Source: Saccoglossus kowalevskii (taxonomy: Eukaryota > Hemichordata > Enteropneusta > Harrimaniidae). From it: a DNA stretch of 23,117 bases. The translations under genes and the position numbers were made by a program. Numbering within the stretch: position 1 is the stretch's first letter; the number at the start of each line of letters is the position of its first letter. The DNA lies in assembly GCF_000003605.2 (NCBI RefSeq), contig NW_003122923.1:130422-153538 (forward strand), given 5' to 3'. Shown here one piece after another: positions 1 to 23,117 of this stretch. Below the pieces are notes generated by a model. That model saw only the letters and a program-made list of their open reading frames with translations, was not told the DNA's origin and ran no database searches.

Positions 1-199
1 TCTATGGTGGGTAATTGAATGTAGTGAATTTAAAGCTCAATACCTTGGTCTGCCTTCTTGCTCTTTGTCGTCTTTTACACATATCAAAGATTCTAAATAT
101 CTCCTTTAATAGATATACATCTTGTACAAGTGTATTCAAACCACAGCTTTGTTTTGTTTTTCTCCAAAAAATTTAAACTATACGTTGAAATTAACTTAC

Positions 200-305
200 A
201 TCTTCGGCTGCGATCACCTGATTCTAATCGTTTTCGTTGAATTCTTTTCTCTTTCATGCGCTGTTTGATTTCCAAAATGCTGTCATTCAATTCGTGGCTT
301 TCCAT
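200..305 (-). CDS. First coding exon of an unrecognised gene (partial)
   Basis: On the minus strand an ATG at 305-303 opens 35 codons plus one base. The exon ends at a strong donor: AT|GTAAGT, with the intron GT starting at 199. The start context is good (A at -3, G at +4). The peptide starts MESHELNDSILEIKQRMKEK and continues into a basic, probably helical stretch rich in K, R and E (about residues 11-35), as in many coiled-coil proteins. Further minus-strand reading is intronic, so the rest of the gene lies beyond the left edge. Just upstream of the ATG there is a possible acceptor (TTTTTCAG, exon from about 338), so the 5' UTR may be spliced. I do not recognise the family. Start, donor and charge pattern make a real exon likely, but a single 106-nt exon is limited evidence. 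Confidence 0.6.
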
Positions 306-5317: not shown

Positions 5318-5807
5318 GTAACTATTTTAAATTAGTTTTATTGAAATCTGTTGTAATGTTTTTGAGAAAAAGTGGAAAGGCTTAAAATTGGCTAATTGAT
5401 ATGCAAATTAGGTAATTAATATGCACCAAAAACTAATCAGGTCTGAGTATTATTTTAGAACACTTGTATCTAGTTTCATTGGGATCTGTTGCATGATTCT
5501 TGAGAAAAAGTAAAGAGGCGTAAAATTGGCTAATTAATATGCAAATTAGGTAATTAATATGCACCAACAACTAATCAAGTCTGAGAATTATTCTAGAACA
5601 CTTGTATCTAGTTTCATTGGGATCTGTTGCATGGTTCTTGAGAAAAAGTAAAGAGGCGTACAATTGGCTAATTAATATGCAAATTAGGTAATTAATATGC
5701 ACCCAAAACAGACACACACACAGACGCACTAACCACAAAGACTGCTATTGCGTGTGAACACGTTCTCTATTTTAACTCAGATAACTAATAATTATTAGTG
5801 GTCTGAG
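5318..5807 (-). repeat. Tandem-repeat transposon remnant (HINE/pearl-like), minus orientation
   Basis: Three copies, the first divergent, of a unit of about 138 bp. The phrase GCTAATTRATATGCAAATTA recurs at 5391, 5529 and 5667. The array runs into a short CA tract (about 5711-5722). Next comes a block that, reverse-complemented, reads AGTCTTTGTGGTTAGTGCGT. A CGTGT-TC-ACACG hairpin follows near 5750-5762, and then a 28-of-32 palindrome at 5776-5807. Read in reverse this is the same order (hairpin, TG tract, tandem repeats) and the same family as the array at 22200-23117. The architecture resembles non-autonomous Helentron-type elements (pearl, DINE-1), but no diagnostic Helitron end was identified. 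Confidence 0.6.
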
Positions 5808-6668: not shown

Positions 6669-8712
6669 ATGAGCGCGCCAACAGATGTTGCGAAGTTGGT
6701 GACTAGAAAAATGTAAGTCCACACATACACGCACACACACAGGACTGTCCTGTCCAATGATTCACCAACTCGTTACAGACTTCATACTAGTACTATTTAT
6801 TCTTGCACGTACCGGTATTGAACGCTTTCATTCTGTCAGTGTCACTAATAAACACATTCCGTTTTATCGTCCGTACATACCAAACTGTCTAATTATATTG
6901 CCTCTTTCTTTAAATGTCATTATTGAAAACTATATTATTAATGTAGGTCAACGGGCCACCTCTATATTATACCGGTATTTTCTATTGACAACTCTACCTA
7001 TTGTGTTCACTAAACAGAATCAATCAAGATATAAAGTCGAATGTTTATAGTTTTAAATTCTTTTATAAGTGGTTGTATCATAGACTATTGTTGATGTATA
7101 CACAACAACAAAAATACACAATCATAGTCAGTGTATTTGTTTGGAGTAATGTTACACATATTTCATAAACTTGAGGAGCCTTGATTGCCTTGTAATGAAA
7201 CACAATGAGCATAGTTTCATCTGAATTCCAGCAATACTGTAAGATTTACATGAAAAAATATATTATTGTACCTGCTATTGTATCTCTTTAAGGCATTGTC
7301 TCCAAAATGGCGCACACTTCAAAATCATGCAATGTAACACAGCTAATAGACATTATATGTATATATTTAGTCGTCTACATGGTATTGAATTTTTGTGCTG
7401 TAATGGCGGCTTTCATCAAATTCTTTGAACATTCTGTTAAGTTGAAACAGATGTTAACAACAATATTTACCAATCACAGACACTACCGGTAGTACATTTC
7501 ATGTTCATGCATGATCACCTATTTCGCCCTCAACTTTGAACATTTACAAAATTTGATTTGCACTCTATTACTTTTATACACTTCATTTTGCAAGAGGCAA
7601 AATTTCCCTGGTAGGTTCCTATAAAAAAAGCAGTCACAGCGACTTTTGCAAACAATTTTGGTCAATGACATTGTGAAATTTGGGAAAATAAAGTGATTAC
7701 ACTTATCTTTTTTTCTCGTTTTCTTGTATACAGGGAGTACATGATGAATGTACATCGAGTGGAGACAGGTTTCGATTCGTCAGGCAGCGGTCGTCACAGC
7801 ACCACAAAGCGAATGGTGAGTTTTATTGTATTTGCAAAATTGAAATTGTCTGCAAAATTGTTTTGTTGATTTCACAATTAAAATGGGTATCAATCTCAAC
7901 AGTCTAAATAAAAATTAAAATTACAAATCAAAATTAAACTTCAACATTTGTCATCTCACTTCATTTTTAAAAATAGATTTACATTTGCAATCTTGCTTTT
8001 ACTTTTTGAAAATAAATTTACATTTGAAAACTTTTTATTTTTATTTTTGAAAATGTATTTATAGTTGAAAACTTTCTTTTATTTTTGAAAGTACCTTAGA
8101 TTCACATTTGGAATTTTAATTTACATTAAAAAATGTATTTAAAATTGCATTTTCACTGCAGTATTTTAAAAGAGCAAAGGGGTGGCGAAAATTCAAAACC
8201 ATTTTAAAAAATCAAAATAAAAAGTCATTTTAAAACAGAAGTGAAAATGCAATTTTAAATGTAAATCTATTTTTAAAGTGAAGTAAAATTACAAATTATA
8301 ATTTGCATTTTGATTTGTAAATTTAATTTTTACTGATGCTTTTAAGTTTTATATCGATTCTAATTGTGTTAGTTATAAAGAGTTAACATGGATTTATTTT
8401 GGTATTTAGTAATCCATTTGGCCAAAACTGATGTTTGTATTACCTAATGAATATATATGTGCTAGGTATACAGCTTATGTAACACCAAGACATAAAGGTA
8501 TTCCTCTTTATCTGCATACTATTATTGTATAGGCTGACCTGATATACACTTTGTCAATCTGATTATAATAAGACCCTACTTTGGGTTTATTGTGTGTTTT
8601 TTTTTAAAAGTCATTGTTTTTCTAATTATGTATTTAATTATTCATTTTTGGTACAAACAATACAACAGAATGTACATATTACTAATACTAATAATACTAC
8701 TACTACTACTAC

Positions 8713-8751
<39 letters not shown>

Positions 8752-11700
8752 TACAAAATAATAAAAAATGTAGTACAAATAAAATAAAATATATACAAAA
8801 ATAAAATAATAATACATGTCATACAATACATATAATTTGATAATCAGATTGACACCTGGTAGTCTGTTTACTTAATCTTAGTCTGTTTTATACTTAATCC
8901 TATTTTTTTTATTTATTATTAAATCACAGACATCTTTTTAAAATTTAAATTCAACTTTCAAATTTTGTCCTAACAAACAGTGTTCTGTACACATGATGTA
9001 TACATCATATGAGACCCATATCTAATATAAAATATTTATTGATTGCAAAATTATCAGATTCTTGATTAAAGTTCTATTTGTTTCTCATACTAGGCGAGAT
9101 ACGATATGGCATACCTAATTCAGACTGATGATAAAAAGAAGAAACAGAAAAATGCAGGTAAAGACAAGAAAAAACAAGAAAGAAAGAAGAAATCTAGCAA
9201 TGATGTAGCAGAAGATAGAAAAGATGGTACACAAGAAGAGGAACCTAAAAGTGAAAAAGAACAGTCATGGACTGGATTGAGCAAATCCAGAAGACAGGGA
9301 AGAGCAGAGTCTTCAGAAAATGATGAGAAATCTAGTAAAGGAGAGTGGAAAGGAATCACTATGTCACGGAAAACGAGTAAAACAGAGAATAAGGAAACGT
9401 CAAGTGAAAGTCAAACAAAAGAAAGTGAGGGAGATTGGACTGAACTCAGTAACTCAACAAAAGATGAAAATGAAGAAAAAAACTCAGTTGAAAGAAAAGA
9501 TACTGAAAGAGAAGACGATGTTGATAAGAAAATTGATGAGGAATGTAAAAATAAGTCCAAGAGGAAGAAAAAGGACAAAACTCTAATCTCGCCTCGACTA
9601 CAGAAAGATACTTTGCCAAAGAGTTTAGTGAGAAAAAAGCAAATGAAACAGTTGACAGAGGATGCCAATAAATTGTTTGTAAGTACATGTGATTACTAAA
9701 CAGTGATTGGTGGATTGTACAAGTGATGAAAATTATCTGTATTCTGTGCATTGTGTATAATTGTTTAAACTTTTATCATCTACAGGAATCACTGGATGCA
9801 GGTACTATTGATAAATATTTCCGATACCGACCGTCATGTAAAAACAAAGACAGCTTAGACTTGGTATGTTGTTTGTCTTTCTGAGTATTAATCGTCTTCC
9901 ATTGTGATTCAAGCATTTCATATTCAATTTAACTACTGTTATACCTATAACTGTAAAATACTTTATTTTAGCTGGAATTAATTTTTGCTGAAAAGATTTT
10001 TTTGGTGATTTGTATGGAATTCAGTTTCACTGATTTTTGATGAGTTGAATGTAAAATATTAGAAAAAAAGGTATATTCACTGGATTTTATTTTCACTGAA
10101 TCATTCCTACCGCGAAAATTAATTCCAAGTGAAAATAAAGTATTTTACAGTATGCAAATGAGTTAATTTTATGAAAACTATATCTTTGATCAGAATTTTT
10201 ATTCCTGACATAAATTACCTAAAAATGTACAAAAATGTATCACCAGGATTACCAATGTTGAAGCAATATTGTTATTATTTTGCAGTTATTGCAGTTAGGC
10301 CCAGGACATTTTTTTTCTTCTTTAAATTGTATTTCGATTTTGTTTTTTGATGAAAAAATTATTTTTCCTTTCAAAAATTTTTAGCTGTCACATACAATGA
10401 CCAGAAACTACCAGTAATTATAACTTAAAAGTTATTCAGTTATCTCAACATTACCTTGGGATATTTTGTCATAATGGCCACTATAAATGTCATAATATAT
10501 TTCTTATTATTTGTCATATTTTAGGTGTAAGTCAGTAAATTTAACTGAAAACACTTTTAGACCCTTTGTCTAAAATGGTTGAACAAAATTAGGATACAGT
10601 GTGATGTGAAGGAAATACCAGCAAATTGCTGATGACTGGGGATTATTTGAATTTTTTTTTAATTCACAGATTGTAATCATATCAATTTTTTTTTCTCAAA
10701 TTATTACTAACACCATGTTTTTTTCTTCTATTTTTCTCTAGGGTAAAGTGCGTCCTTTGTCAATGCATGTTGATGCGATTTTGAATTCTTCTAAAGCAGT
10801 CTCCTTTGCCATAGAACACGGTGAGTTTATCACAAGGTTTGTAGACAATATCCAATGAATGACCAATGATATCAGATTTACAGAACAAGCAAACATAGAC
10901 TAAAAAAAACAACAGAAGACAGAAAATGTACTAAATGCAACCTACTTGAGGATGAAATTTATTACATCACAAAATGTGAACTTTACACAGATGAAAGAGA
11001 GTTGTTATATTCACATTCTTCAAAGAAAATTAACAATTTTCAACACTGTACAAACAAAGAAAAATTCATTCATATATTGAATAAAAACAACAAATATTTA
11101 CTAACAGAGCTTATCAAATCAAAACCATGATCCAGTGCTTCTTGGCATGACCAACCTCATTTGAATACATGAATATCGTTCTTTTAACACATTTAGTTTA
11201 TCAAGCATTAAACTTACTTTGGTGAATGTCTGGATCCACTGGTGTAGTGGAAAGAATAAGATTTGCTATATTTACTATACTATATAACAGTTATTAGAAA
11301 AATATAATATTCTAATCATATTAATTATTCAAGATTTTTAATTTCGCTATTTTCACAGATAACCAGTGAAATTTATCAAATCAAAATAGTGAAATTAATT
11401 GTCAGTGAAAAAAAATGGTTTTAAAGTATATGAATCTTGCCTGCAAGAATGATTAAAAATTGCTGGATTATGATATAAAAAATTTGCATGGCTTTATTAG
11501 CACATGGAATTTGCATTATATTTGTTGTTAATATTGTTATACCATATCTCAAATGAAAATGTTCCTCAAGTCAACAGGTTCCTGCGATTAAAGATATGGT
11601 GGGCAGTCTTACATCTACTATATACTTTTATAATTTTTTATAGTATTCTCACTTATTGGGACTTATTGCCTTAGTGTTTCTGATTGAACACTGGTATATA

Positions 11701-14700
11701 TAAAACATAAACATCACAAATCTATGCATACATTCTAATCACCAATAATTAATTCAGCTTTTCATTAAATGTTTTCTCATATTTCAGATGACAGAAAGTC
11801 TGCCCAAGAACATCAGAAAAAACAAAATGAAAAAGCTGCTTCTAAGGTGTGTGTGAAAATTGGTATTACTGTAATAATGTTAGGATGAATTTTGTATTCA
11901 TGTTAATTTTGACCTCACCTCGATTTAGTACTAAAATGTGAAATGCTTTGAATGTTTTAGAGAAAAGAAGAAGAAGCCAGGAAAAAAAGAAAAGAAGAAG
12001 AAAAGAGAAAAAAAAAGTTGGCCATTGGATGTGGGAAGCAGCCACATGTGGCAACATTGCTTGGGTGAGACTTCATCAACATTTTCTAGTAATTTCATCT
12101 TCGGAAATTGTGCATCAAACTTCCTAAAATATTTTTCTCATTTATCATGATTTGTACACTTGTTGCATCGACCATAACTTATTCTCGGGGACGTACATCC
12201 AAGTATTTTCACCGCCTGGCAACCGCCATGGTAAAAACAAAGGCTGAAAACTCTCGGAAAACGGTACTTTGGGCTAGTTGTTGGGACTCTTCTGAACAAT
12301 GTAACAAGACTACCCCTACATGTGTAACATATATAAATTTGGTTGCTCAGTATTACTTCAAAATTGAGTTTGTGTTGTTTCCTTGACTTTAGCTGTTTTC
12401 AATGGCTCCTCGACCGGCGTTCCATAGCAGCTTGCGCAGAGCCCATAGAAATACATAGAACGTTCTGTGATGTAACTCCGCTCCCAAGGATAGAATGATT
12501 ATTGAATAATTTGGCACACAGACATGAGTTTGATAATTAGTTTAAGCATTTCAACTACCGGTTTGTTTTGAATATCATAACTTGTTTATTGGAAATTTTA
12601 TTGTAAAAAGCCAATCACATTACATCTCTAAGACATAACCATTTAATTCATTGTGACTGACCATTTCTGTGAGTTCAATGGAAAGACATTGTTATGTAAA
12701 TGGGGGGAAGGATTCCGTTTGCAGTGTCGATATTCTTCTGATCTGTTTTAAATCACTTTTTATTACTGATAATGATGACCACACAACCAAACAGTGTTGT
12801 CTATTTAGACAATAGTTTTTGTATTCAAACATATCATTTTGCTGTCACACAAGTGCTTCATCACTGGAGGGTGTATTAGCTAGCAGCCACATTACCGTAC
12901 TGTGCTTTCCTTTATTTCTGACAATATGATAATGCAGAAAATTTTATTGCATGGTGACTATAGGTTAGCAGAACATTGAAGTGTCTCTCAGTCGTTATTG
13001 AACAAATTTTGTTCAAAATTCGTACAAACATGATGGGACATAATTGTTTTCATACATGTCATTTTGTTTCACAGACCGTAATCAAAATGGCTGACTGGAG
13101 AACGTTTTGTATTAGTGAATGCTGTTATGGACCAATCAAATCCAAACTTTACACATACTCTGTGCATGCATGAACATGATGCATTTGCCTTATTCTGTGT
13201 AACATTGTGAATTCAAAATGGCCAACTGGTGGCTATTTTATTTTCAAAAATATAACATGCCATTTTGTTTCAAATATTAACTATACAAACTACCAAGTCT
13301 GTTTACATTTATTTACTTTATAAATGCTCATTAATATACCATGTGATGAATGACTATACATTTATGTACTACAAAAAAGTGTATATAGTATGAACAAAAA
13401 AATACACGTCAGGAATTTGAAGTATTATTGTTACTGAAACAAATTTGTTATAACACAACTGGGTCGAATATGTAACTTCCATACTTTTGTTTACTAGTAT
13501 GCATTGGGTATTGTGTCATATCTATCTTTCAAAATGTTAATGCTTTCGCAAACATAATTGTATCAATTCAAAACATCAGGATTACGTCATTGTCACTATT
13601 GATGTTTTCTATTTAATAATAAACTGTAATACTTTAATACTTGTCTTACCTTATGGTATTGTTGCAGATCATTGTTGGAAAACGACCAGAAGTACAAAGA
13701 GCAGAAACCGTCAAAAAAAAATCAAGATGAGGAAGAAGATAAAAAGAGAGATTCTTTGCATGTGATAAGTCCGATGCATGACCATGAGAGTAGTAGTGAC
13801 AGTGACAGTGACAGTGACAGTGACAGTGACAGTGACAGTGATAGTGATAGTGGTAGTAGTGCATCATCCTCTTCATCTGATGATGAAGCAAAGAAGGAAA
13901 TCAAAGATGCCCGGACTATGACTCCTGCAAGTGAGCCTGAATCGTCTAAGAAGAGTGAAGGTGATTGGACTATGATTAGTAAGGTTACAAAAGATGAATC
14001 CATGGCGACAGAATCATCTCAGCAGAATGAAGAAGTGGAGCAAGAGAGTAGCTGTGATGAGTTGGCAAAACTGGCCAGTTCCACAAAAGAAGGTGATAGT
14101 ACGTCTCAGGATGACAAAACTGGAAGTGGTATATCAAGTAATGATGATGACGACGAGAAAACTACTCCCAGACCAGACACTCCCAGACCAACCACTGCAA
14201 CACCACTGTTAGTTGCTAAGCAAGAAGGATCACAGCGTGGAAGTGCCAGTTCATTGTCATCCATCAAATCCGGCAGTAGTACATCAAGTTCATCATCAGA
14301 GAGTTCTCAATCATCATCTGGTGGTAGTAACAAGAGACCAAAATCTGCTCAGGGATCACAGTCTTCTGTTAAAAAAAATTCCATTCACAGTGATACATCA
14401 AAGCATTCATCAGTCAGTTCACTGAAGACAAAAACTAAGACTGAAAGTGTTGAGTCTGATAAAGATGGTGTGATGTCAAAGCCATCAAGCAAAGAAAGCG
14501 AAATTATGAAAAGCGAGAGTAATGAATCCAGAGAGGAAACTGTATCTTCTATGAAAGAAAGTGAAGGTGAGAAGAGCACGGATGAGGTTGGTGATGGGAA
14601 ACAGTGGACTTTCATCAGCAAGTCAGGTAAGGACCAGCCATCAACAGAGCAAGAAGGTGATAAGCTAAGTATTACTGGAGATGAACCTGAACAGAAGTGC

Positions 14701-15057
14701 CATCCAACTGAGCACAGTGAGGATGTATGCGAAAACTCTGATAAGAAAATTGATACGTCCACTCCAACAGCTCATGATGAAGACCAGGGAGATTGTACAA
14801 AAACTGCTAGTCTTGATGTAGTGAAGGAGACAGAAGAAAACAAAGAAGTTATCAAAAATGACGATTGTCCAGATTCAGATTTAGATTTATCATCAGTTTC
14901 ATCATTGGATACTTCAATGGACAGTGACACCAGTGACTCAGATTCTGATTCCGATTCTGATGTCCAGCAAAGTGTAAAAGGAAGTGATAAACAAACTGGC
15001 AGTCTGCCTGAGAAGACTGTGTCTGTTGGTGGAATTGAAGGGGAATCTAAATGTTAA
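6669..15057 (+). CDS. Uncharacterised 806-residue disordered protein with five W-x-x-[LI] motifs (8 coding exons)
   Basis: The exons are 6669-6712, 7734-7815, 9094-9678, 9786-9863, 10742-10820, 11788-11846, 11961-12064 and 13668-15057. All introns are GT-AG (donors such as GTAAGT and GTGAGT), and phases agree at every junction. The total is 2421 nt: 806 codons and TAA. The start has A at -3. Visible parts: residues 1-51, ordered-looking (EYMMNVHRVETGFDSSGSG, then KRMARYDMAYLI); 52-205, Lys/Glu/Ser-rich with Trp motifs at W101, W127 and W157; 206-355, a second ordered-looking block with TIDKYFRYRPSC, PLSMHVDAIL and a charged KEEEARKKRKEEEKRKKK helix (about 311-328); 356-806, Ser/Asp/Glu-rich with Trp motifs at W444 and W657 and Ser-Asp runs. 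No signal peptide or membrane segment is visible, so it is presumably cytosolic or nuclear. I do not recognise the family. Confidence 0.85.
6713..7733 (+). other. Intron 1 of the 806-residue protein gene
   Basis: It has donor AT|GTAAGT and acceptor TTGTATACAG. A short AC-rich stretch follows the donor (about 6720-6741). The open frames inside (6757-7050, 7307-7492) lack splice context and look like chance. Confidence 0.7.
7900..8335. mobile_element. Foldback/MITE-like inverted-repeat element in intron 2
   Basis: The outer arms begin CAGT and end ACTG. Left AAAAATTAAAATTACAAATC is mirrored at about 8310-8334, and a 21-bp perfect match TTTAAAAATAGATTTACATT(T) links 7966-7986 with 8257-8277. 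A nested arm TTTAAAATTGCATTTTCACT (8138-8157) is a perfect 20-bp inverted copy of 8240-8259. The interior is very AT-rich, with repeated ATTTTTGAAAATnnATTTA phrases and no coding potential. Composition alone would not give perfect 20-21-bp inverted matches in mirrored order. No target duplication was resolved. Confidence 0.65.
8680..8748. repeat. ACT/AAT trinucleotide microsatellite
   Basis: A run of ACT units changes into a longer run of AAT units inside intron 2. It ends in AAATAAAT. Frames on both strands through it give only poly-Ile/Leu or poly-Leu/Val, which is a by-product of the repeat. Confidence 0.9.
9094..9678 (+). CDS. Exon 3: basic Lys-rich segment with three of the five Trp motifs
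   Basis: This exon is 195 codons in phase 0-0 (residues 43-237), acceptor TACTAG|GCG, donor TTT|GTAAGT. It opens with the end of the ordered N-terminus (ARYDMAYLIQTDD), then a strongly basic run of Lys and Gln (about 55-76). Three Trp motifs follow at roughly 26-30-residue spacing: SWTGLSKS (W101), EWKGITMS (W127) and DWTELSNS (W157). A second basic run lies near 196-203, and the exon closes with the start of the central block (LISPRLQKDTLPKSLVRKKQ). The even spacing and shared flanks suggest internal duplication of a short linear motif. Confidence 0.8.
9950..10151. mobile_element. 202-bp MITE with about 40-bp terminal inverted repeats in intron 4
   Basis: The left end CTGTAAAATACTTTATTTT (from 9951) followed by GGAATTAATTTTTGC is mirrored by GCGAAAATTAATTCC and AAAATAAAGTATTTTACAG (ending 10150). 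The arms pair over about 40 bp with one gap and a few mismatches. The interior is AT-rich and non-coding. No unambiguous target duplication is seen. The size and long inverted ends are typical of MITEs. Confidence 0.75.
10870..11130 (+). pseudogene. LINE (non-LTR retrotransposon) 3' fragment, C-terminal Cys motif region
   Basis: An open stretch after a stop at 10867 reads YRTSKHRL, then DRKCTKCNLLEDEIYY, TKCELYTDERELLYS and finally TELIKSKP with a TGA at 11128-11130. This matches the extreme C-terminus of many animal LINE ORF2 proteins: LR-S-H-L, then C-x2-C, V/L-EDE-x-H-F, x2-C-x-x-Y, x3-R-x-x-L. The usual His after EDE is Tyr here. About 86 codons remain; endonuclease and most of the reverse transcriptase are missing, as expected of a 5'-truncated insertion. 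It sits sense-oriented in intron 5 of the 806-residue protein gene and cannot be active. Confidence 0.7.
11335..11400. repeat. Short inverted repeat in intron 5
   Basis: TTAATTTCGCTATTTT (about 11339-11354) is mirrored by AAAATAGTGAAATTAA (11383-11398) with one mismatch. The loop is about 28 bp. It recalls the ATTTTCACTG and AATTTTCGC phrases of the 9950-10151 element and may be a short decayed relative. Confidence 0.4.
12065..13667 (+). other. Intron 7 of the 806-residue protein gene
   Basis: It has donor GG|GTGAGA and acceptor TATTGTTGCAG. No further exon with both splice sites in phase is visible. A patch at 12180-12480 is less AT-rich than its surroundings but has no recognisable content. 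Short phrases (CAAAATGGCYRACTGG, CATTTTGTTTCA) occur twice near 13.06-13.27 kb. Confidence 0.6.
13668..15057 (+). CDS. Exon 8: Ser/Asp-rich acidic C-terminal half with two Trp motifs
   Basis: This terminal exon carries residues 344 (last base of its codon) to 806 and the TAA at 15055-15057. The first dozen residues (SLLENDQKYKEQ) finish the ordered central block. The rest is low-complexity and acidic. There is a nine-fold Ser-Asp run (387-404), the motif SEGDWTMISKVTKDES (W444), a Pro/Thr stretch (TTPRPDTPRPTTATP), long Ser runs, the motif GKQWTFISKSGKD (W657), and a second Ser-Asp cluster near 762-774. The many Ser next to Asp or Glu are good casein kinase 2 targets by sequence. Retention of a 461-codon frame through repeats argues that it is coding. 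Confidence 0.85.
13795..13848 (+). repeat. In-frame hexanucleotide repeat encoding (Ser-Asp)9
   Basis: Seven AGTGAC units (13795-13836) are followed by two AGTGAT units. Each encodes Ser-Asp, so unit-length changes keep the frame. The C-to-T change is silent. It is a coding microsatellite inside exon 8 and likely to vary in length between individuals. Confidence 0.9.
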
Positions 15058-15975: not shown

Positions 15976-15981
15976 AATAAA
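15976..15981 (+). terminator. Candidate poly(A) signal of the 806-residue protein gene
   Basis: This is the first canonical AATAAA after the stop codon, followed by GT- and T-rich sequence (AAGGTGTCAATACC, TTGATTTTGTCATC). It would give a 3' UTR of roughly 0.95 kb. An ATTAAA variant near 15663 is an alternative. Confidence 0.5.
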
Positions 15982-17442: not shown

Positions 17443-17821
17443 ACACTAAATCATCCGATATTGACTTCTCCCCCATCAACATCATTGGACAACCCTATTT
17501 ACCATCTTCCTTGTTTACTCTATGTAGACGACTTAGTGCTTCTGTCAGAAAGAATTACAAATGGCGTTAAACAAGCTGGAAAATGGAAACTAGATATAAA
17601 TATCACGAAATCAAAGCCCAATTTTGTTTTACTGCTCTGAAGTGCGGTCTGATGGCATCATTAGGCAACAACAAAACTTCATTAACTTTCTGCTACCGAT
17701 AGAAAAAAAACAACAACAATATTGTAAATTCCTTCTTAGGGTAAATAGTAGAGCAGCAAACCTATCCTGTGTATTAGAACTACGGGCGCTTCCACTTATT
17801 TTGTCAGGGATTGCAGTGAGT
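17443..17821 (+). pseudogene. Decayed LINE reverse-transcriptase remnant
   Basis: An open stretch ending at TGA 17638-17640 reads NPIYHLPCLLYVDDLVLLSE and then KWKLDINITKSK. This matches the active-site region of non-LTR retrotransposon reverse transcriptase (usual form LLYADDLVLLS followed by WxLxVNxxKSK). The second active-site residue is Val here instead of Ala, which some families use. In another frame (about 17699-17821) IEKKQQQYCKFLLRVNSRAA and NLSCVLELRALPLI match the next conserved block (FCKxLLGVxxxAxNxAVxxELGRxPL). The spacer between them is shortened and the frame shifts, so it is a dead fragment. It lies between the 806-residue protein gene and BBS5. Confidence 0.7.
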
Positions 17822-18583: not shown

Positions 18584-21359
18584 ATGGCCACCTTTGATGC
18601 ATTGTGGGAGGACAGAGATGTGCGCTTCGATATTAGTCCTCAGTAAGTAAAATTGAGTTGTTATTAGCGCGTAAACTGCGAGTCGTTGTGCAGTATTGAT
18701 TTGTTTATAGTGAGTGTTTACCTGTCGCCGGCTGGCTGCAGTTCTGTGGCTCTTGCTGTCACTATTTTCTTTATCGCGATCACCTCTTGACGGACGAAAT
18801 AACACAACTAGCGATACAAATACGAACTCCCGAAATACGAACAAAGCGTTCGGCGCCAACTCATCTCGTACATGCAACAAACTATACGTGTATATTTTTA
18901 TCTTTATATTAGTGTCAACACATGAAAATTGTATTTTCAAGGATGCAATACATTATTATGTATAATTTTGTATTATCACATTAGAAATTGGAGTTAGGAA
19001 ATGACATTACCCGGTATATTTCGACTGAATATCCACTTTAATACAGTAGATGCCATATAATAAACTGATCATGAAAACCATTATCTCCCTTCCTTTCTTT
19101 AGAACATATCTGGTGTTTGACGTTGCCTTCACTATTTTTAATAGAGGTGTTCAGATAATAATTCACTGTAAAAATATGAAATTCCCCTCGGACTTGGGTG
19201 AAAAAAACACACAATTTAATATTTTTGAATTTAAATTCTATATCGATCCATATATCCCATTTGAAAATGCTTCTGTCCATTTATTGAATTTGAGTTCAAG
19301 CAGCTTTCATTGTACTTTAGTCACGTGTCATCTACGAATGAACATCGTGGAGTTGATTCTTTAGTACAGTCTATTTCATCCAATATCACCACCAGTTTAA
19401 TCTTGTGTAACTACAACTTCTAGTTCCAATATCGTCTGTTATTGATTGTGTACTAGTATTTAGCTAATGGCTGAATCCTGGGAAAGGCATTGTGAAGATT
19501 TATTAAAGATCTGGAAACTGTTGGACGATAAACTTAGAGCCAAGACATGAAACTTCTGGTGACAAGAGCTGTTGCCACTGGGAGTATAAAAAACTACTGT
19601 ATTGTTGAAAATATGTATTTGTAAACATTTCAAATCAAAAGAGTTTTTAATTTGTATGTACTGTGCTCAAGATGCTCTTGTTGCCTTGAAGTGTGACCCC
19701 CCCTTATGAAAGTGGTATGCTCCATGCCTATGTACCAGTAAAGATTGATAATCAAGTTAGCTAATCAGTAAGCAGTTTTGTGAGGTAAATTTTAATACTG
19801 GTGTCTCAATATCATAGGTGTCAGGTGCAAATGAATATCTAGTGTGCTCAACCTTTTCACCACCAGTTCCCTCTTTTCATCACAAAATAGTCATGTTTAT
19901 AATCTGTACTTTTCTTCTGAAGATTGGGACAATAGCCAAATTTTTTGAGTAAAAACTGAATATTGCCTCAAATTTTGTCTACTGGCTCCAAAATTAGGGT
20001 TCATTGCCATAAATATTGAGAAAAGAGTGCAGAAAAAATTTGGGCGAGAAAGTCTGGTGGTGAAAATGTTAATATTTAATAAACAAAATTTTTGTTTAAT
20101 TTTGCAAACTCTGGGAAAGTAATTTTTTTGAAGAAATATTTATTTCACATCTATCTCTAACTGCAATCACTTTGATTTACTGTATTGTATTTTGCATTCT
20201 AACAGACAAATGAAGATGCGTCCTGGTGAGATACTTATAGATAGACTTGATTCAGTTGAAGACACTAAAGGAAATAATGGAGACAGAGGTATGCCTCATG
20301 TGCTGATATGCAATACAATTCAAATGTGTCATTGACGTGACTGAGTCTGCTTTAAAACAGGATATGTAAATTTATAGAACCACAGTTATGTCTTATCATG
20401 CGCAGTATCGGTCCCATTTAATAACACGCATTATTTGTTTATATGGAATTACAACGGATGCCATACAACAAATGTGGCAATTCAAGTCAAAGCAAAAGAT
20501 GTTCCAATGGTGTTACACTCAGGAAGCACATGTTGCTGCATATTTTGACTAAGGGGTTTTATATAGTACACAAGCTAATGTTAAGCTAATATAAGTCAGT
20601 GCGTTCTTATTGAAAAGTGCATAGTTTCACATCAGTTTATTATCAGTCTGTTTCCGTATTGGCTACTCATCTCTTGCTTAGTGTTCGTCTATTCCATTGT
20701 CTGCCACATATGCCACTGTCATCATTACCTGTTAATGGATATATGCTTACATTGATATCATGGTATGTGCTCAATTGGTGAATAAATCCTGGTAATAAAC
20801 CAGATTTGATTACTTTTGAGCATGGTATAAATGTAATGTGTCATACGCTCTTGGGGTTAATCCTATTCACGACAGTATTACATAAATCCAATATCTACAA
20901 TTATAGAATACTGTCTACTGGCTTTTCTTCCAAAGTGTCAGTGTATCACAGTTGTAACTACATGGCAACGGCATCTACTGTGGTCGGCAGTGGATATTAT
21001 GTTCCATCCTATCCATTAGGTGGGTAGCTAATCTCGATACAAGATTTTATTACTCCAACAACAGATTGTTTTTGCATGATGCCTTCATTCAATAAATTGT
21101 TCTATTCTAAAACAGGTCGCCTAATAATAACCAATCTAAGAATAATATGGCATTCTCAGACGCTGCCGAGAGTGAATCTCTCTGTTGGGTACAATTGTAT
21201 CGTTAACATCACCACAAGGACGGCTAATTCTAAACTTAGAGGACAGACAGAAGCATTATATATATTAACCCGGTGTAATAACACACGATTTGAGTTCATA
21301 TTCACTAATCTTGTACCTGGAAGTCCTAGATTGTTTACCTCTGTCATCTCTGTGCATCG
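18584..21359 (+). CDS. BBS5: BBS5, Bardet-Biedl syndrome 5 protein (first three coding exons)
   Basis: Coding exons are 18584-18642, 20206-20288 and 21116-21359. Junctions CA|GTAAGT...CAG|A, G|GTATGC...CAG|GT and CG|GTGAGT keep frame. The start has A at -3 and G at +4. The product begins [20 protein letters not shown] and contains [41 protein letters not shown] and [20 protein letters not shown]. These are near-identical to vertebrate BBS5. BBS5 is a core BBSome subunit that carries membrane cargo to and from cilia and binds phosphoinositides through two PH-like (DM16) repeats. Here 128 codons plus two bases are present, of about 340, covering the N-terminus and first PH-like repeat. The remainder must lie right of the window. 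Confidence 0.97.
18643..20205 (+). other. BBS5 intron 1
   Basis: A 1.56-kb intron with no further element recognised. A 148-codon minus-strand frame at 18940-18494 overlaps exon 1 antisense; it has no family resemblance and no splice context. Confidence 0.7.
20289..21115 (+). other. BBS5 intron 2
   Basis: An 827-bp intron with no repeat or exon recognised. The acceptor is TTCTATTCTAAAACAG. Confidence 0.8.
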
Positions 21360-22199: not shown

Positions 22200-23117
22200 G
22201 ACTCCCATGTGCGAAGCACAAAATGGGAGTCTTTGCAGTTAGTGTGTCTGTATGTGTGTGTGTATGTGTGTATGTGTGTATGTGTGTATGTGTGTGTGTG
22301 TGTGTATGTGTGTCCGACTGTTCCACTGCTATCTCAAGAACCATACTTCGTTTTTTGATGAAACTTGGTGCATAGATGCTCTGGGCCAATGCGCAGATTT
22401 GATTAGGTTTTGGTAAAAATCCATGCTCGTTAATTACCTAATTTGCATGATAATTAGCTAATTGTTTGCTGTTCTATGACTGTTCCACTGATATCTAAAG
22501 AACCACTCATTGGATTTTGATGAAACTTGGTACATAGATGCTCTGAACATATGCGCAGATTTGATTAATTTTTGGTAAAAATCCGTGCATATTAATTACC
22601 TAATTTGCATGATAATTAGCTATTTTTTAGTGGTTCCATGACTGTTCCACTGATATCTAAACAACCACTCATTGGATTTTGATGAAACTTGGTACATAGA
22701 TGCTCTGAACTAATGCTAGGTTTTGATTAGTTTTTGGTAATAATCCGTGGATACTAATTACCTAATTTGCATAATGATTAGTCAATTTTCAGTTTTTCCA
22801 CTGATATCTCAAGTACTAATCATCACATTTCAATGAAACTTGGTACATAGATGTCATACGACACTGCACAGACCTGATAGTTTTTATGGTAATATCAGTA
22901 CATATTAATTACCTAATTTGCATAATTAATTAATTTTCAGCATTTGATATAAGTAGTTAGCATTACATTTCAATGAAACTTGGTACTTACATACTCAAGG
23001 ACTATGCAGAGATTGATTGTTTTCGATAAATATTTGTGCATATTAATCACCTAATTTGCATAATTAGTTAATTTTCAGCTTTTCCACGGGTATCTCAAGT
23101 ACTAATCATCGCATTTC
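22200..23117 (+). repeat. Hairpin + TG tract + tandem-repeat array (HINE/pearl-like), plus orientation, runs off the edge
   Basis: It opens with a two-tier hairpin: GACTCCCAT (22200-22208) pairs with ATGGGAGTC (22223-22231), and inside it GTGC pairs with GCAC. Next comes AGTCTTTGCAGTTAGTGTGT, then a TG/TATG microsatellite (about 22250-22313). At least five units of about 140-162 bp follow, marked by TGTTCCACTGATATCT, ATGAAACTTGGTACATAGAT and TAATTACCTAATTTGCAT. Unit spacing is 162, 162, about 151, then 140-146 bp. The array continues past the window. It matches the 5318-5807 element in reverse orientation: 27 of 31 bases agree in the block beside the TG tract. The layout resembles Helentron-derived non-autonomous elements; the family is unconfirmed. 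Confidence 0.7.

What the first reader, a model, noticed from the sequence alone, without database searches (positions are those of the whole stretch)
9256..14640. Five p62-like W-x-x-[LI] motifs in one unrecognised disordered protein
Seen: W101 (EQSWTGLSKS), W127 (KGEWKGITMS), W157 (SEGDWTELSNSTKDE), W444 (SEGDWTMISKVTKDE) and W657 (GKQWTFISKSGKD). All share W-[TK]-x-[LI]-[ST], four of the five as W-T-x-[LI]-S, in a Ser/Lys/acid-rich context, and these are the only evident repeats rich in Trp. Known: ATG8/LC3-interacting regions have the core [WFY]-x-x-[LIV] with acidic or Ser residues before it, and that of p62/SQSTM1 has DDWTHLSS, very close to these. Inference: a multivalent ATG8-family binder (selective autophagy receptor or scaffold). 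Ser at -1 or -4 would allow phospho-control, as in optineurin. Ubiquitin-binding or PB1 domains were not recognised, so it would not be a standard receptor.
Basis: partly seen in the sequence, partly recalled or inferred. Interest (0 to 1): 0.72.

Follow-up and report, generated by a model that had tools for sequence, protein, structure and literature searches.

The report
Disordered protein, five tryptophan motifs
An unrecognised, mostly disordered protein, probably of an animal, has all five of its tryptophans inside one repeated short motif; two copies look like good docking sites for autophagy proteins, three match the known signature poorly.

Summary
Eight exons (6669-15057, +) give an 806-residue protein in a 572-Mb genome. 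It has exactly five Trp, all in W-[TK]-x-[LI]-[ST]. L/I at +3 in 5 of 5 has P=1.2e-6 (3e-4 after 242 tests); 0 of about 40,000 shuffles reached it.

The ATG8/LC3 reading is partly supported. W157 (GDWTEL) and W444 (GDWTMI) match the extended LIR pattern and score 22 and 23 on the iLIR scale, recovered here from its published table (p62: 24). W101, W127 and W657 fail that pattern. Acid before the Trp is not a shared column; T at +1 and K/R at +8 are. ATG8 genes exist in the genome. No Pfam family matched; PDB searches gave only chance or low-complexity matches.

Most likely a multivalent ATG8 binder with two strong and up to three accessory LIRs (0.4). Close rival: a repeated motif for another partner (0.35). 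Orthologue conservation, the decisive test, could not be run: the collections hold no other animal genomes, and the paralogue search did not complete.

The parts
6669..15057 (+). Spliced gene model, eight exons: 6669-6712, 7734-7815, 9094-9678, 9786-9863, 10742-10820, 11788-11846, 11961-12064, 13668-15057; 806-aa protein (start codon inferred)
   Evidence: GT/AG borders and phases consistent; AATAAA at 15976; no transcript data
9094..9678 (+). Exon 3, with motifs W101, W127 and W157; folded alone from a single sequence, the Trp stretch is low-confidence coil between two end helices
9268..9282 (+). Motif 1: W101 WTGLS, hexamer QSWTGL; fails xLIR
9346..9360 (+). Motif 2: W127 WKGIT, hexamer GEWKGI; fails xLIR (K at X1, G at X2)
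9436..9450 (+). Motif 3: W157 WTELS, hexamer GDWTEL; xLIR, recovered iLIR score 22.0
13668..15057 (+). Exon 8, last exon: Ser/Asp-rich, holds the (SD)n run and motifs W444 and W657
13966..13980 (+). Motif 4: W444 WTMIS, hexamer GDWTMI; xLIR, recovered iLIR score 22.9
14605..14619 (+). Motif 5: W657 WTFIS, hexamer KQWTFI; fails xLIR (Q at -1), no acid from -3 to +2

Best explanation
The gene encodes a largely disordered, Lys/Ser/acid-rich intracellular protein (no signal-like N-terminus seen by eye) that acts as a multivalent tether to ATG8-family proteins. W157 and W444 would be the main docking sites: Trp in hydrophobic pocket 1 and Leu/Ile in pocket 2 of an LC3- or GABARAP-type protein, with the preceding Glu/Asp touching its basic face. 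W657, and less surely W101 and W127, would be weak accessory sites that add avidity on an ATG8-coated membrane, as described for yeast Atg19. Ser/Thr around the cores (S at -4 in three copies, S/T at +4 in all five, S at +6 in four) could add negative charge by phosphorylation. Shown: the motifs, their non-chance regularity, the LIR scores of two, and ATG8 genes in the genome. Inferred: binding, avidity, phospho-control and any link to a cargo.
For: 5 of 5 Trp in W-x-x-[LI]. Two of five meet xLIR; recovered iLIR scores 22.0 and 22.9 against p62 24. My own matrix puts W157 above 90% and W444 above all of 29 verified LIRs scored by leave-one-out, and both above all 20 unverified ones; the summed score of the five was reached by 0 of 3000 shuffles. 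Four of five meet the older rule of an acid in -3..-1, X1 or X2 (rule; acid counts). ATG8 exons on two contigs. Compositional disorder; low-confidence coil around the Trp of exon 3. Precedents: six LIRs in RTN3L, accessory LIRs in Atg19.
Against: Three of five fail xLIR and all five fail cLIR; two xLIRs are reached by 2.5% of 5000 shuffles, so that count alone is only mildly unusual. W101, W127 and W657 score above only 3%, 14% and 28% of the 29 verified LIRs and above 0%, 10% and 55% of the 20 unverified ones. Acid before the Trp is not a column shared by the repeats; K/R at +8 is. Flanks after W101 and W127 are basic (+4 and +3 over eight residues). Lys-rich NLS-like runs would also fit a nuclear protein. 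No orthologue was available and no binding data exist.
Confidence: 0.4

Rival explanations
1. The five copies are one repeated short linear motif, W-T-x-[LI]-[ST]-x-S-x-[KR], for a partner that is not ATG8. The resemblance of W157 and W444 to LIRs comes from the W-x-x-[LI] core, which several docking motifs share.
For: The columns that survive correction are T+1, [LI]+3 and [KR]+8; acid before W is not among them. Three copies fail the LIR expression. The protein carries basic NLS-like runs and 56 [ST]xx[DE] sites.
Against: I know of no described motif with this pattern, but no motif library was searched; only two peptide searches of the PDB and one text search for letters were run. The two best copies score like verified LIRs.
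Confidence: 0.35
2. Acidic-string motifs for the PH domain of TFIIH p62/Tfb1, where an aromatic residue and a hydrophobic residue three positions later (Trp133 and Val136 of XPC) fill two pockets. The protein would then be nuclear and recruit TFIIH.
For: Same aromatic-x-x-hydrophobic spacing and disordered setting; NLS-like runs and Ser-Asp tracts here.
Against: The strings seen are strongly acidic (e.g. EDDEDDEDEADFEDV). Here the eight residues before each W have net charge 0, -1, -2, 0 and -2. None of the five has Val at +3, though Leu is used in one fission-yeast string.
Confidence: 0.08
3. Trp motifs for Trp-binding pockets, as in GW182-type proteins that bind Argonaute or the deadenylase subunits NOT9 and PAN3.
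For: Isolated Trp in long disordered Ser/Lys-rich sequence. The comparison is recalled, from no call.
Against: Such Trp need no fixed hydrophobic at +3 (recalled), while here +3 is the most constrained column. No Gly stands directly beside any Trp.
Confidence: 0.05
4. The motifs are remnants of internal duplication in a low-complexity protein, without a binding partner.
For: W157 and W444 share 11 of 15 residues in the best register and 8 of 15 codons in the Trp-centred one, as a duplication would.
Against: The other nine pairs share only 2 to 5 of 15 codons, yet W and [LI]+3 persist in all copies and T+1 in four. No other rare residue tested shows a shared column.
Confidence: 0.12

Closest known systems
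SQSTM1/p62 LIR (DDDWTHLSS)
   Same: W-T-x-L-S core; W157 reads GDWTELS
   Different: p62 has three Asp before W and PB1, ZZ and UBA domains (recalled); here one Asp and one Glu in the three residues before W157/W444, and no recognised domain
RTN3L, six LIRs in its N-terminal region
   Same: Several LIR-like motifs spread along an unstructured chain (passages)
   Different: RTN3L has a reticulon homology domain; no Pfam domain was found here
Yeast Atg19, one canonical plus accessory LIRs
   Same: Strong and weak motifs in one chain, proposed to give avidity (abstract)
   Different: Atg19 is a cargo receptor; here no cargo or cargo domain is known
XPC / TFIIE-alpha acidic strings for the TFIIH PH domain
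   Same: Aromatic-x-x-hydrophobic in a disordered chain (passages)
   Different: The strings seen are much more acidic and mostly use Val at +3

Membership tests
LIR/AIM-containing protein | Core [WFY]-x-x-[LIV] | tested here: met
   5 of 5 Trp; in all 6 [WFY]xx[LIV] sites against a shuffle mean of 1.7 (0.4% of 5000 shuffles reach 6)
LIR/AIM-containing protein | xLIR expression of iLIR | tested here: inconclusive
   Met by 2 of 5 (W157, W444), not by W101, W127, W657 (expression)
[quoted passage not shown]
   0 of 5; not a necessary feature: the verified p62 LIR does not meet it either
LIR/AIM-containing protein | Motif in disordered sequence | tested here: met
   Mean hydropathy 0.339, below the boundary 0.426, with recalled scales; exon 3 model low-confidence coil at its three Trp, from a single sequence, which is weak evidence. 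Exon 8 not modelled
LIR/AIM-containing protein | Partner present in the organism | tested here: met
   Four ATG8 exon matches over the cut-off on two contigs
LIR/AIM-containing protein | LIR-dependent ATG8 binding | not testable with these tools
   Needs peptides or pull-down; complexes could not be folded
LIR/AIM-containing protein | Motif conserved in orthologues | not testable with these tools
   No collection of other animal genomes; 0 relatives of residues 211-299 in viral and prokaryote contigs, as expected
Selective autophagy receptor | Recognised cargo- or ubiquitin-binding domain | tested here: not met
   No Pfam family at E up to 5 for the whole protein
TFIIH-PH acidic string | Strongly acidic stretch before the aromatic | tested here: not met
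   Net charge 0, -1, -2, 0, -2 in the eight residues before W

The most novel reading that the evidence does not exclude
The five copies are instances of a docking motif not yet described, W-T-x-[LI]-[ST]-x-S-x-[KR], repeated in an unrecognised protein family and read by a partner other than ATG8, possibly switched by phosphorylation of the Ser at +4 or +6.
Probability: 0.25. Interest if true: 0.65.

Novelty: new member of a known kind. Interest (0 to 1): 0.4.

Why it matters
If W157 and W444 bind ATG8, this is an unrecognised protein with several LIRs and no known cargo domain, so it would point to a new autophagy adaptor or a non-autophagic ATG8 scaffold. If they do not, the five-fold repeat is a clean handle for finding another Trp-reading domain. 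Either way it is directly testable with five peptides and ATG8 proteins of the same species.

Tried and rejected
Pfam scan of the whole protein and two pieces at E up to 5: no family. PDB sequence search of residues 1-363: one match at E 0.13, which I take as chance. PDB search of residues 364-806: one match at E 0.00047, a polyketide synthase chain, confined to residues 384-414, the Ser-Asp and Ser runs, which I take as low complexity. PDB search with 30- and 28-residue peptides around W157 and W444: one match (E 0.76) and none; phmmer is weak for such short queries, so this says little about LIRs. Relatives of residues 211-299 in viral contigs and genome contigs: 7 and 44 pattern matches, no relative; these collections are not of animals, so this does not show a lineage-specific gene. 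Text search for letters of the motifs: 0 papers in the held library. Text search for the ankyrin-G LIR: 0 papers; that its core is W-T-E-F-S is recalled only. MDM2-type F-x-x-x-W-x-x-L (recalled) was rejected: residues at -4 are K, S, S, S, D. Kinesin W-acidic, AP2 WxxF and PEX5 WxxxF/Y motifs were considered from memory and do not fit the letters. Rfam: no match in the window. Paralogue and PB1-domain (p62) searches of the genome did not complete. One search was a trial text search with no hit and no bearing.

Scope and dropped rows. Matrix: 29 of the 34 verified entries of the iLIR table; left out were the two pentapeptides, the two verified ones outside xLIR (NDWLLP, SHWPLI) and one duplicate, which biases it towards canonical LIRs. 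Regression: 90 distinct scored hexapeptides typed from the table, duplicates once; leave-one-out on 87. For W101, W127 and W657 some letters are absent from the table, so their sums (15.8, 16.1, 16.1) leave those positions out and are not comparable. Shuffles with a Trp near the C-terminus were skipped, so n is slightly under 40,000. The disorder scale and boundary are recalled. Naming the ATG8 exons LC3-like and GABARAPL2-like is by eye from recalled sequences.
Full report
What is there. The window is bases 130422-153538 of contig C1565 of a 572-Mb genome in 4830 contigs. On the + strand, eight exons with GT donors, AG acceptors and consistent phases give an 806-residue protein, with an AATAAA at 15976. 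The exons are a model read from the sequence; no transcript was available, and the start codon is inferred. That the organism is an animal is my inference from the introns, BBS5 and the ATG8 genes; no call names it.

The observation. The model has five Trp, and every one lies in W-[TK]-x-[LI]-[ST]. With L+I at 6.6% of residues, L/I at +3 in five of five has probability 1.2e-6; 0 of about 40,000 shuffles reached it and 2 reached four of five. Over 242 combinations of offset and residue class, three distinct columns survive correction: [LI] at +3 (3e-4), T at +1 (0.027) and [KR] at +8 (0.043). S/T at +4 is five of five but does not survive (0.23). F, Y, C, H or M as anchor gives no corrected value below 1. 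The strongest 15-residue repeat in the protein, with long Ser-Asp and Ser runs masked, is the W157/W444 pair, 11 of 15, against a maximum of 9 in 200 shuffles. As W157 is in exon 3 and W444 in exon 8, this also argues that both exons belong to one gene. A six-frame scan of the window finds no further copy on the + strand and one other match on the - strand; 30 nucleotide shuffles average 2.0 matches.

Is it a set of LIRs? The expressions come from the iLIR paper (PMC5119064; outline, passages and its table section seen). The extended LIR is met by W157 (GDWTEL) and W444 (GDWTMI) and by no other site in the protein; the canonical LIR is met by none. Shuffles average 0.24 extended LIRs per protein, and 2.5% of 5000 reach two, so on this measure alone two is only mildly unusual. 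I recovered the paper's additive scores by regression on 90 scored hexapeptides (leave-one-out error 0.05 on 87). They give 22.0 for W157 and 22.9 for W444, beside 24 for p62. In the paper's table, above 18 there were 13 of 27 verified LIRs, 0 of 20 unverified, 0 of 18,018 background and 5 of 18,065 randomised hexapeptides. My own matrix from 29 verified LIRs puts W157 above 90% and W444 above all of them in leave-one-out, but W657, W127 and W101 above only 28%, 14% and 3%; among 20 unverified xLIRs the three stand above 55%, 10% and 0%. The summed score of the five was reached by 0 of 3000 shuffles, and all five Trp reached the observed minimum in 2 of 3000.

The weak three. W657 has no acidic residue from -3 to +2. 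W127 has Lys at X1, and W101 and W127 have Gly at X2. In a peptide study of the PLEKHM1 LIR, small or positively charged residues at X1 were generally disruptive and Gly or Pro at X2 could decrease binding; Phe at X2, as in W657, raised LC3B binding (PMC5538626, passages and the first part of the discussion seen). A review gives acidic or phosphorylated residues before the aromatic as affinity-enhancing (PMC7564214, passages). Here an acid stands in -3..-1 in four of five but is not a shared column. So the claim of five p62-like LIRs is too strong; two are p62-like.

The partner. The ATG8 family gives four matches over its cut-off in the same genome, on two contigs. Read by eye against recalled sequences, C3163 encodes an LC3-like protein and C3995 a GABARAPL2-like one. 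This shows only that a partner exists, as would be expected in any animal.

The protein. It is disordered by composition (mean hydropathy 0.339 against a boundary of 0.426, recalled scales), with net charge near zero, Lys-rich runs that could be NLSs, and 56 [ST]xx[DE] sites. Exon 3 alone, folded from a single sequence, gives low-confidence coil around W101, W127 and W157 (mean pLDDT of the whole model 58) and two end helices, the second at about 87 pLDDT. No Pfam family at E up to 5. PDB searches gave one match at E 0.13 for residues 1-363 and one at E 0.00047 for residues 364-806, confined to the Ser-Asp run. Orthologues in other animals could not be sought with these collections; the gene may well have named relatives that I could not see.

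How it probably works. The best-supported reading is an ATG8 tether with two strong LIRs 287 residues apart and up to three accessory ones. Two precedents are close: RTN3L, in which binding was lost only when all six LIRs were mutated (PMC5517149, passages), and Atg19, in which accessory LIRs give avidity (PMC5009254, abstract). The strongest argument against it is that the features shared by all five copies are not those that mark LIRs. A dedicated motif for another partner is therefore almost as likely. The TFIIH PH domain reads a similar aromatic-x-x-hydrophobic core (PMC10345426, passages), but in far more acidic strings than any here.

Surroundings. Downstream on the same strand lie the first exons of BBS5 (Pfam BBL5 E 9.4e-56; the two solved relatives listed are BBS5 chains). 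I see no reason to link its function to the gene studied.

Verdict. Observation confirmed; interpretation partly supported. Interest is moderate: a well-defined, non-chance motif repeat in an unrecognised protein with a plausible, cheaply tested partner, but no conservation or binding evidence.

Noticed in passing
window 18584-18642, 20206-20288, 21116-21359: First three exons of BBS5 (Bardet-Biedl syndrome 5) on the + strand; just beyond the window the contig reads as a long run of N, where its later exons would be expected.
   Followed up: partly
window 17443-17640: Short frame with YVDDLVLLSE, which looks by eye like a broken reverse transcriptase of a retroelement.
   Followed up: no
window 5333-5709 and 22316-23083: Tandem arrays with units of about 138 and 162 bases; by eye both contain versions of an AT-rich segment like TAATTACCTAATTTGCAT or its complement.
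   Followed up: no
window 13795-13852: Six-base AGTGAC repeat, 9.7 copies, coding the Ser-Asp run; perhaps length-variable between individuals.
   Followed up: no
window 9400-9420: SSESQTK (residues 145-151) resembles a dynein light chain LC8 site shortly before W157 (motif recalled).
   Followed up: no
window 198-305, - strand: A possible first coding exon MESHELNDSILEIKQRMKEKRIQRKRLESGDRSRRC of an unidentified divergent neighbour.
   Followed up: partly
exon 3 end to exon 5, about 9568-10820: Hydrophobic-richer stretch (residues 201-280), with a helix at about 87 pLDDT at the end of exon 3; possibly a folded domain and the best handle for orthologue searches.
   Followed up: partly
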